A stretch of 64,000 bases of DNA from Bacillota bacterium (lineage in GTDB: Bacteria; Bacillota; Clostridia; Lachnospirales; Lachnospiraceae), in assembly GCA_029224465.1 (NCBI GenBank), contig JAQXUQ010000006.1:186001-250000 (forward strand), written 5' to 3'. The stretch's first letter is position 1, and each line of letters opens with the position of its first letter. Positions 35,717 through 36,720 of the stretch are shown here, in pieces. The position numbers and the translations under genes are program-made. The notes under the pieces are model-generated. The model was not told the origin of the DNA. It did not search any database and saw only the letters and a list, made by a program, of their open reading frames with translations.

Positions 35717-36346
35717 ATGGCCATATCTAAGGTAACGTATGCCGGAAATACGTTGATTGATCTTACAGGGGACACGGTTACACCGGAGAAACTGCTTTCC
35801 GGGGCGACTGCGCATGCAGCGAACGGCGAAAAAATCACAGGCATTGTTGAGGATAAAAAGGGCGAGCTGGAGGCACAGATCGCAGATTTGCGTAGTCAGA
35901 TAAGTTCGTTAAATGCGAATTTAGCGAATACAATGTATCCGGTTGGATCAATCTACATATCTGTAAATGCAACAAACCCATCCGAACTGTTTGGCGGCAC
36001 GTGGGAGCAGATCAAGGGCAGATTCCTTCTGGCCGCTGGAAATACATATGCTGCTGGTTCAATAGGTGGCGAGGCGGCACATACACATAAATACGGTTTC
36101 CAGTATGGTGCATACTATGGAGCAATTTCAATGGAGCAGGATGCTCAATCCGGCGCACTGCAGGGCGGGACTGGAACCCCAGTAGGTTCGGCATACACCG
36201 CTGACACAAATTCAGACGTCAACAATAATGCTACGTCGGCTAAACAGACTTTAAGGTTGTCGCATTACAAATCTATCGCTGATACGTCGTCTGCAAGCAA
36301 TATGCCCCCGTACCTAGCTGTTTATACGTGGAAACGTACTGCCTAG
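35717..36346 (+). CDS. tail fibre/receptor-binding protein, currently expressed C-terminus
   Basis: MAISKVTYAGNTLIDLTGDTV N-terminus paralogous to the previous gene; YPVGSIYISVNATNPSELFGGTWEQIKGRFLLAAG collar-like C-terminus; 23-bp IR at 35906-35928. Confidence 0.85.
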   Translation: MAISKVTYAGNTLIDLTGDTVTPEKLLSGATAHAANGEKITGIVEDKKGELEAQIADLRSQISSLNANLANTMYPVGSIYISVNATNPSELFGGTWEQIKGRFLLAAGNTYAAGSIGGEAAHTHKYGFQYGAYYGAISMEQDAQSGALQGGTGTPVGSAYTADTNSDVNNNATSAKQTLRLSHYKSIADTSSASNMPPYLAVYTWKRTA

Positions 36347-36720
36347 GCCAGCACATACGCAACAAATCCCCAGCACCATCCGCCGGAGTTAAAACTCACA
36401 GCATGGGTATTTATCTTTATTACGTTGTCAACAACCCAGAGTTCCCCCGTTAATCCGGATGTCTGCTCCTGAATAATACCGACCGGATAATTCGGCCTTG
36501 TTTTCGCTGGATAGTATCCGGATTTTAATTTTGCTAAGGCAAAATCATTCCACTGCGGGATGCTAATACCATGCATTCCGAATGATAGCCAGCATAGAAC
36601 GATTTTTCCTTGTATGGCTACATTGCAGAATTGGATATCGAATCCGTTTTGTGCGTCCGCAATGTCGGATAACGGCAAAACGTGTAACGCGGAATGGTTC
36701 GCTAAATTCGCATTTAACGA
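35906..36720. other. invertible DNA segment (tail-fibre switching cassette)
   Basis: perfect inverted repeats TCGTTAAATGCGAATTTAGCGAA at 35906-35928 (+) and 36698-36720 (-), in the same reading frame relative to both fibre C-termini. Confidence 0.88.
36343..36720 (-). CDS. silent alternative tail-fibre C-terminal cassette (no own start)
   Basis: frame SLNANLANHSALHVLPLSDIADAQNGFDIQFCNVAIQGKIVLCWLSFGMHGISIPQWNDFALAKLKSGYYPAKTRPNYPVGIIQEQTSGLTGELWVVDNVIKINTHAVSFNSGGWCWGFVAYVLA; typical phage fibre C-terminal beta-sandwich sequence. Confidence 0.85.
   Translation of the reverse strand, partial: SLNANLANHSALHVLPLSDIADAQNGFDIQFCNVAIQGKIVLCWLSFGMHGISIPQWNDFALAKLKSGYYPAKTRPNYPVGIIQEQTSGLTGELWVVDNVIKINTHAVSFNSGGWCWGFVAYVLA

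What the first reader, a model, noticed from the sequence alone, without database searches (positions are those of the whole stretch)
35906..36720. Invertible tail-fibre cassette with 23-bp perfect inverted repeats and an in-frame silent C-terminus
Seen directly: TCGTTAAATGCGAATTTAGCGAA occurs inside the fibre gene (35906-35928) and as its exact reverse complement at 36698-36720. From the outer repeat, the minus strand reads in the same frame SLNANLAN then a start-less 100+ residue fibre-like C-terminus ending at 36343, so inversion would give ...ISSLNANLAN-HSALHVLPLSDIADAQNGFDIQFC...GWCWGFVAYVLA in place of ...ISSLNANLAN-TMYPVGSIYIS...YTWKRTA. The two C-termini converge tail to tail with stop codons overlapping in the palindrome GCCTAGGC (36341-36348). 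The repeat is itself a near-dyad (TCGTTAAAT-GCGA-ATTTAGCGA), as expected of a recombinase site. Established knowledge: Mu/P1-type phages switch host range by inverting fibre 3' segments. Inference: this prophage alternates between two unrelated receptor-binding tips (collar-like vs beta-sandwich).
Basis: partly seen in the sequence, partly recalled or inferred. Interest (0 to 1): 0.92.

Follow-up and report, generated by a model that had tools for sequence, protein, structure and literature searches.

The report
Phage tail-fibre switch with dif-like sites
A prophage in a gut Lachnospiraceae bacterium carries a DNA segment that flips to swap the tip of its tail fibre, and its flip sites look like the bacterium's own chromosome-resolution site (dif), which suggests that the phage borrows the host's Xer enzyme to change which cells it can bind.

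Summary
The 23-bp perfect inverted repeat flanks a 0.8-kb segment holding two tail-to-tail fibre tips, and flipping it joins the silent tip in frame. The switch is seen in nature: a 97.3%-identical sister phage (L003) is colinear with the window for 11.8 kb up to the repeat and then runs inverted. A second phage lineage (L008 versus L218) shows the same event. The same stem is found fused at the repeat to at least five different tips.

The repeat belongs to a site class, TTCGNTAAA-N6-TTTANCGAA, found as inverted pairs in about nine fibre cassettes. Spacers match within a pair and differ between cassettes. No common phage recombinase was found, and the window prophage encodes only a large serine integrase. 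The arms match a single-copy, intergenic, terminus-located site linked to a single XerS-like recombinase across Lachnospiraceae, that is, the host dif. In this host it lies 2.0 kb from that gene.

Best explanation: host Xer flips phage fibre tips at dif-like sites. The inversion is shown by comparison; Xer as the enzyme is inferred (about 0.8). I found no earlier report of this in the papers searched.

The parts
35717..36346 (+). expressed tail-fibre gene (209 aa): constant stem about residues 1-64, site-encoded linker SLNANLAN, collar/Gp10_C tip
   Evidence: ORF; PF21939 E 2e-15 over residues 70-208; phrog tail proteins; tip 40-46% identical to Lactobacillus phage putative antireceptors
35905..35928 (+). 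inner dif-like inversion site TTCGTTAAA-TGCGAA-TTTAGCGAA, read in frame inside the fibre gene
   Evidence: best-scoring position in the window with a half-site matrix from chromosomal dif sites, 31.1 bits
36698..36721 (-). outer dif-like inversion site (GTCGTTAAA-TGCGAA-TTTAGCGAA on the minus strand), same spacer
   Evidence: second-best position in the window, 20.3 bits, next best -1.3
36343..36720 (-). silent, start-less alternative fibre tip joined in frame to the outer site
   Evidence: translation; the homologous tip is expressed as a fusion in L003 and in proteins P0001, P0002, P0008
36341..36348 (.). palindrome GCCTAGGC holding the overlapping stop codons of the two converging tips
   Evidence: sequence
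35139..35708 (+). upstream paralogue sharing the fibre's N-terminal module (63-nt repeat, 76%); outside the invertible segment
   Evidence: phrog_13589
5298..6731 (-). prophage large serine integrase (478 aa); the only PF00239/PF00589 recombinase detected in the prophage; not the likely inverter
   Evidence: PF00239+PF07508+PF13408, phrog_95 integrase; genome-wide recombinase positions
4953..5303 (+). host tmRNA gene at the left end of the prophage

Best explanation
The segment 35905-36721 is a two-state genetic switch in a temperate tailed phage of Lachnospiraceae. Recombination between the two inverted 24-bp sites flips about 0.8 kb, so the constant fibre stem is joined in frame either to the collar-type tip or to an unrelated orphan tip. 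The site itself encodes the SLNxxLAN linker at the end of a helical stalk. The sites are dif-like: arms of the host's chromosome-dimer-resolution site made symmetrical around a private 6-bp spacer. The enzyme is most likely the host's single XerS-like tyrosine recombinase acting in trans, so the phage needs no invertase gene. The spacer acts as an address: sites recombine with their partner of equal spacer and not with dif. Shown by comparison: opposite orientations with breakpoints at the site. Shown by sequence: the dif-like nature of the site and the xer-dif linkage. Inferred: Xer catalysis, the role of the spacer, and a change of receptor or host range.
For: Inversion: window 24164-35929 aligns to L003 1-11765 at 97.3% (colinear), and window 36299-36720 aligns to L003 12163-11742 (inverted), broken at the 23-mer. 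L008 and L218 show the same for a second lineage (flank +, cassette -, junction at the site). L013 equals L008 with the first tip removed between the two direct sites. The same stem (1-71) is fused at SLNANLA/SLKSDLA to five or more tips. Site class: inverted pairs with the same spacer in L008, L015, L136/L164, L144, L152, L157 (two nested pairs with different spacers), L192 and a second prophage of the same host. Host dif: the motif found a conserved site in the genus. It is intergenic with unrelated flanks, 0.2-9.2 kb from a XerS-like gene in 20 of 25 genomes (2.0 kb in this host), and present in 25 of 31 genomes with a Xer of at least 55% identity versus 0 of 19 with at most 46% (Fisher 1e-8). 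GC skew falls across the site in every genome sampled and changes sign clearly in G016 and G074. Of 80 Lachnospiraceae xer loci, 48 carry exactly one such site, with 0 hits for two control patterns in 1.3 Mb, and two near-variants bring this to 50. A half-site matrix from those dif sites ranks the two repeats first and second in the 64-kb window. None of 9 cassette spacers occurs among the dif spacers. Phages sharing the sites have unrelated integrases or none found.
Against: No reads, no induction data and no enzyme assay: Xer catalysis is not shown. The chromosomal dif sites were collected with a pattern derived from the cassette, so the matrix score is partly circular; the independent support is xer linkage, copy number and GC skew. 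Six genomes with a good Xer showed no site (incomplete assemblies or variants). Known XerS/difSL recombination depends on FtsK at the septum (PMC5357621), which might not serve a site 136 kb from dif. The host Xer scores below NCBIfam's XerS cut-off (193.6 versus 267 bits). Many of the viral contigs are fragments, so an unseen phage recombinase cannot be excluded for them.
Confidence: 0.8

Rival explanations
1. The prophage's own large serine integrase (5298-6731) inverts the cassette; on the circular phage genome it would lie close to it.
For: It is the only recombinase gene detected in the prophage.
Against: Large serine integrases need long, unlike attP/attB pairs (general knowledge). The same sites occur in phages whose only detected recombinase is a tyrosine integrase (L008, L144, L164) or where none was detected. 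Variable 6-bp spacers between conserved arms fit a tyrosine recombinase better, and the arms match host dif.
Confidence: 0.07
2. A small serine recombinase encoded by another prophage of the same host (contig C11, 36099-36512) or another resident invertase acts in trans.
For: One small serine recombinase is present in the genome, in a prophage that also has a cassette with related sites.
Against: No such gene was detected in most other contigs with these sites. Serine invertase sites have a 2-bp core, not six free positions (general knowledge). It does not explain the match to dif.
Confidence: 0.05
3. The cassette no longer flips in real time; the two orientations and tip exchanges reflect rare past recombination between short repeats.
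For: Only comparative evidence exists; one orientation is assembled for this host.
Against: Both sister copies keep intact 23-bp repeats and intact reading frames in the silent tip. The same breakpoints recur in independent lineages. Within-pair spacer identity is kept while spacers differ between cassettes.
Confidence: 0.08

Closest known systems
Mu Gin / P1 Cin / p15B Min tail-fibre inversion systems (serine invertases)
   Same: Inversion of the fibre 3' segment joins a constant N-terminus to alternative C-termini that converge tail to tail; multi-tip arrays exist (L008, compare Min).
   Different: No phage-encoded serine invertase; 24-bp sites with 9-6-9 layout and variable spacer, resembling host dif. 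Knowledge of Gin/Cin/Min as summarised in PMC6109161.
Rin shufflon of Bifidobacterium prophages (PMC6109161)
   Same: Tyrosine-type mechanism for exchanging RBP C-termini in gut prophages.
   Different: Rin is a phage-encoded recombinase beside the array, with asymmetric 11-bp rix sites; here no recombinase lies in or beside the cassette and the sites are symmetrical and dif-like.
IMEX phages (CTXphi, VGJphi, TLCphi) that use host XerCD (PMC5357621)
   Same: Phage DNA carrying dif-like sites that exploit the host's dimer-resolution recombinase.
   Different: IMEX use it to integrate at dif; here paired sites inside the phage are used for inversion, with spacers unlike dif, and the prophage sits at tmRNA with its own integrase.
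XerS/difSL (Streptococcus, Lactococcus; PMC5357621, PMC2731167)
   Same: A single Xer recombinase gene genetically linked to its dif site near the terminus.
   Different: difSL is 31 bp with an 11-bp central region; the Lachnospiraceae site is about 28 bp with a 6-bp centre and TTCG arms; the Xer is a XerS relative below the XerS cut-off.
Ureaplasma XerC-mediated inversion of the mba locus (PMC3599477)
   Same: A host Xer-family recombinase flips a phase-variable surface-protein cassette at inverted repeats.
   Different: Bacterial antigen locus, not a phage; in that work the putative dif site was bound by another recombinase (CodV).

Membership tests
Invertible tail-fibre cassette (functional class) | Inverted repeats, one inside the fibre gene, flanking an in-frame silent C-terminus | tested here: met
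Invertible tail-fibre cassette (functional class) | Both orientations exist, with breakpoints at the repeats | tested here: met
   L003 versus window; L218 versus L008
Invertible tail-fibre cassette (functional class) | Switching within a single clone | not testable with these tools
   no read data
Gin/Cin/Min/Pin serine-invertase systems | Small serine invertase encoded next to the segment | tested here: not met
   PF00239 in the genome: only the large integrase lies in this prophage; no PF00239 hit in L008, L144, L164 and most other contigs with the sites
Gin/Cin/Min/Pin serine-invertase systems | 26-bp hix/gix-type site with 2-bp core and an enhancer | tested here: not met
   Site has 9-bp arms and a 6-bp variable spacer; enhancer not sought
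Rin-type tyrosine shufflon | Tyrosine invertase gene within or beside the array | tested here: not met
   PF00589 hits in the host genome are elsewhere; in L008, L144, L164 the only PF00589 hit is a 346-352 aa protein with only weak matches to NCBIfam Xer/integron models, more like a phage integrase
Xer/dif-dependent element | Site resembles the host dif site | tested here: met
   dif-derived half-site matrix ranks the two repeats first and second in the window; host dif at C6:358167, 2.0 kb from xer
Xer/dif-dependent element | Recombination requires the host Xer recombinase | not tested
   needs a binding, recombination or xer-deletion experiment
IMEX | Integration at chromosomal dif through Xer | tested here: not met
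   Prophage begins at tmRNA and carries its own serine integrase; dif is 136 kb away and unoccupied
XerS (NCBIfam NF003462) for the host recombinase | Score above the curated cut-off (267 bits) | tested here: not met
   193.6 bits, best family but below cut-off
XerS/difSL-like single-recombinase system | Single-copy palindromic intergenic site near the terminus, linked to one xer gene | tested here: met

The most novel reading that the evidence does not exclude
A lineage-wide strategy in which temperate phages of Lachnospiraceae place symmetrised dif sites inside fibre genes and let the host's essential dimer-resolution recombinase shuffle receptor-binding tips, with the 6-bp spacer as an address that allows several independent switches in one phage (L157) and avoids recombination with dif itself.
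Probability: 0.72. Interest if true: 0.88.

Novelty: new variant of a known kind. Interest (0 to 1): 0.8.

Why it matters
Phage host-range switches have been described with a dedicated, phage-encoded invertase. Here the switch appears to run on a housekeeping enzyme that the host can hardly lose, which makes it portable between phages and invisible to searches that look for a recombinase next to the segment. It also gives a simple way to find more such switches: take a host's dif arms and look for inverted pairs in its phages. It identifies the probable dif/Xer system of Lachnospiraceae, a major gut family, which I did not find described in the papers searched. It also makes a direct test possible: whether the timing of tip switching follows the host cell cycle (FtsK/Xer).

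Tried and rejected
DNA search of 60 relatives found no second copy of the cassette; the relatives were in viral contigs. A pattern joining the site to a YPVG collar start found only 5 viral contigs and none in GTDB genomes. The silent tip has no Pfam or PHROG match and no match in 50,697 named phage records. The alternative-tip fold model is weak (pLDDT 58), so its best matches (adenovirus fibre heads, lactococcal p2/TP901-1 and Listeria PSA receptor-binding heads, none below E 0.001 in the PDB) are hints only. A search for an exact attL/attR repeat gave no convincing long core. The integrase and the C11 serine recombinase were considered as inverters and set aside. A solitary motif match in G015 lies near a tyrosine integrase and has no partner, so it is not a cassette. 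L048/L075 are fibre arrays with their own tyrosine recombinase and unrelated sites, not members of this class.

Full report
Observation. The fibre gene is 35717-36346. From the outer copy, the minus strand reads SLNANLANHSALHVLPLSDIADAQNGF... to a stop, in the frame that would continue the fibre stem. The two tips meet tail to tail in GCCTAGGC.

The switch is real in nature. An IMG/VR contig, L003, is the same phage: 11.8 kb align at 97.3% identity and colinear up to the repeat, and the rest aligns inverted (window 36299-36720 to L003 12163-11742). Its fibre gene reads stem-SLNANLAN-HSALHVLP..., that is, it expresses the tip that is silent in the window. A second lineage, with another fibre stem but the same two tips, shows the same: L008 and L218 share the outer flank in one sense and the cassette in the other, with the junction at the site. 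L008 has three sites and three tips, and L013 looks like its product after loss of the first tip between two directly repeated sites. In protein databases the same stem is joined at SLNANLA or SLKSDLA to at least five tip types. P0002 (alternative tip expressed) and P0021 (start-less collar tip) come from contigs with the same longest length, 31,366 bases, which suggests one phage in the other orientation (inference from equal lengths).

The site. Aligning the window with L008 gave TTCGNTAAA-N6-TTTANCGAA. A scan of viral contigs with this pattern, followed by a search for a partner within 4 kb, found cassettes in L136/L164, L144, L152, L157 and L192, and in a second prophage of the same host. 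Partner sites share the spacer, while different cassettes use different spacers (TGCGAA, GTCTGA, GGAATA, TGATGC, CAACAG, CTCTAA, CAATGG, GATTAA, CAACGG). L157 has two nested pairs with different spacers. In most of these fibre genes the site is read as S-L-(N/K)-x-x-L-(A/T/S)-(N/K), just before the tip. In the model of the L003 fibre this is the end of a helical stalk, residues 40-72 (overall low confidence).

No phage enzyme explains it. The window prophage has only a large serine integrase. L008, L144 and L164 have one tyrosine recombinase each, which match NCBIfam's Xer models only weakly and look like ordinary integrases, and other contigs show none. A common site without a common phage enzyme points to the host.

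The host enzyme. Allowing two mismatches, the motif recovers a conserved site, TTCGTWAAA-N6-TTTTGCGAA, in many genomes of the genus, intergenic and in unrelated surroundings. In this host it is at C6:358167-358190. A XerS-like recombinase gene lies at C6:360186-361271, 2.0 kb away. In 20 of 25 genus genomes where both were found they are on one contig, 0.2-9.2 kb apart; in the other five they are on different contigs. The site is found in 25 of 31 genomes whose Xer is at least 55% identical and in none of 19 with a divergent Xer (Fisher P about 1e-8). GC skew falls across the site in all ten genomes sampled, with a clear change of sign in G016 (+0.07 to -0.08) and G074 (+0.04 to -0.06), as at a replication terminus. 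Across Lachnospiraceae from GTDB (Butyrivibrio, Roseburia and many MAGs), 48 of 80 xer loci carry exactly one such site, with 0 hits for two control patterns in 1.3 Mb, and two variants bring it to 50. These are the published criteria for dif (PMC2731167) and for a single-Xer module such as XerS/difSL (PMC5357621). A half-site matrix from these dif sites scores the two cassette repeats 31.1 and 20.3 bits; the next position in the window scores -1.3 and the best of 50 shuffled windows 10.0. The matrix is partly circular because the dif sites were first found with the cassette motif; the linkage, copy number and GC skew are not.

Model. The phage carries two symmetrised dif-like sites. The host Xer pairs them by their equal spacers and inverts the segment, changing the fibre tip. 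No cassette spacer occurs among the dif spacers, which would avoid recombination with the chromosome's own dif; this purpose is inferred. The collar tip is related to Lactobacillus delbrueckii phage proteins annotated as putative antireceptors, so a change of receptor is the likely outcome, also inferred.

Relation to known systems. In effect it works like Mu/P1/p15B fibre inversion, but it is not a member of the serine-invertase family, since no such gene was found and the site layout differs. It is not a Rin-type shufflon, because Rin encodes its tyrosine recombinase beside the array (PMC6109161). It borrows Xer as IMEX phages do (PMC5357621), but for inversion rather than integration. A host Xer flipping a bacterial antigen cassette is known in Ureaplasma (PMC3599477). 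Searches of open-access full text for a phage fibre switch driven by host Xer found none; subscription papers and preprints were not searchable.

Limits. There are no reads, no induction and no biochemistry. FtsK dependence is unknown. The identity of the enzyme is an inference with about 80% confidence; the inversion itself I hold at about 97%.

Noticed in passing
L213 (G000 contig C11) 8418-9027: A second prophage in the same host has a fibre cassette with the same site type (spacer CAACGG); its inner site has a weak left arm and its silent tip seems to carry a frameshift, so it may be decaying.
   Followed up: partly
L214 6946-7548 (-): The second prophage encodes a small (about 189 aa) serine recombinase next to its terminase gene; its target is unknown.
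   Followed up: no
L157 12-1251: Two nested pairs of dif-like sites with different spacers around three or more fibre tips: a possible two-level switch in one phage.
   Followed up: partly
L048 4984-7739 and L075: Unrelated fibre-tip arrays with several inverted repeats (AATCACAAAATTCTAAGATTGATAG) and a Xer-like tyrosine recombinase gene inside the array.
   Followed up: partly
L237, L238, L239, L244: Beside the host dif there is an extra inverted half-site (GCATCTTTAACGAATYAGTTG) about 40 bases upstream in several genus members, possibly a scar of an element that integrated at dif.
   Followed up: no
window 36930-37080: A sequence resembling the tmRNA 3' end and its terminator lies downstream of the cassette and probably marks the right prophage end; the cassette is then the last phage segment before attR.
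   Followed up: partly
window 35139-35708 and 35717-35780: Two adjacent genes share an N-terminal module (63 nt at 76%), suggesting duplication of the fibre stem start.
   Followed up: no
L392 (G015 C54) 9994-10021: A solitary dif-like site close to a tyrosine integrase gene in a mobile-element context, without a partner within the 20 kb fetched.
   Followed up: partly
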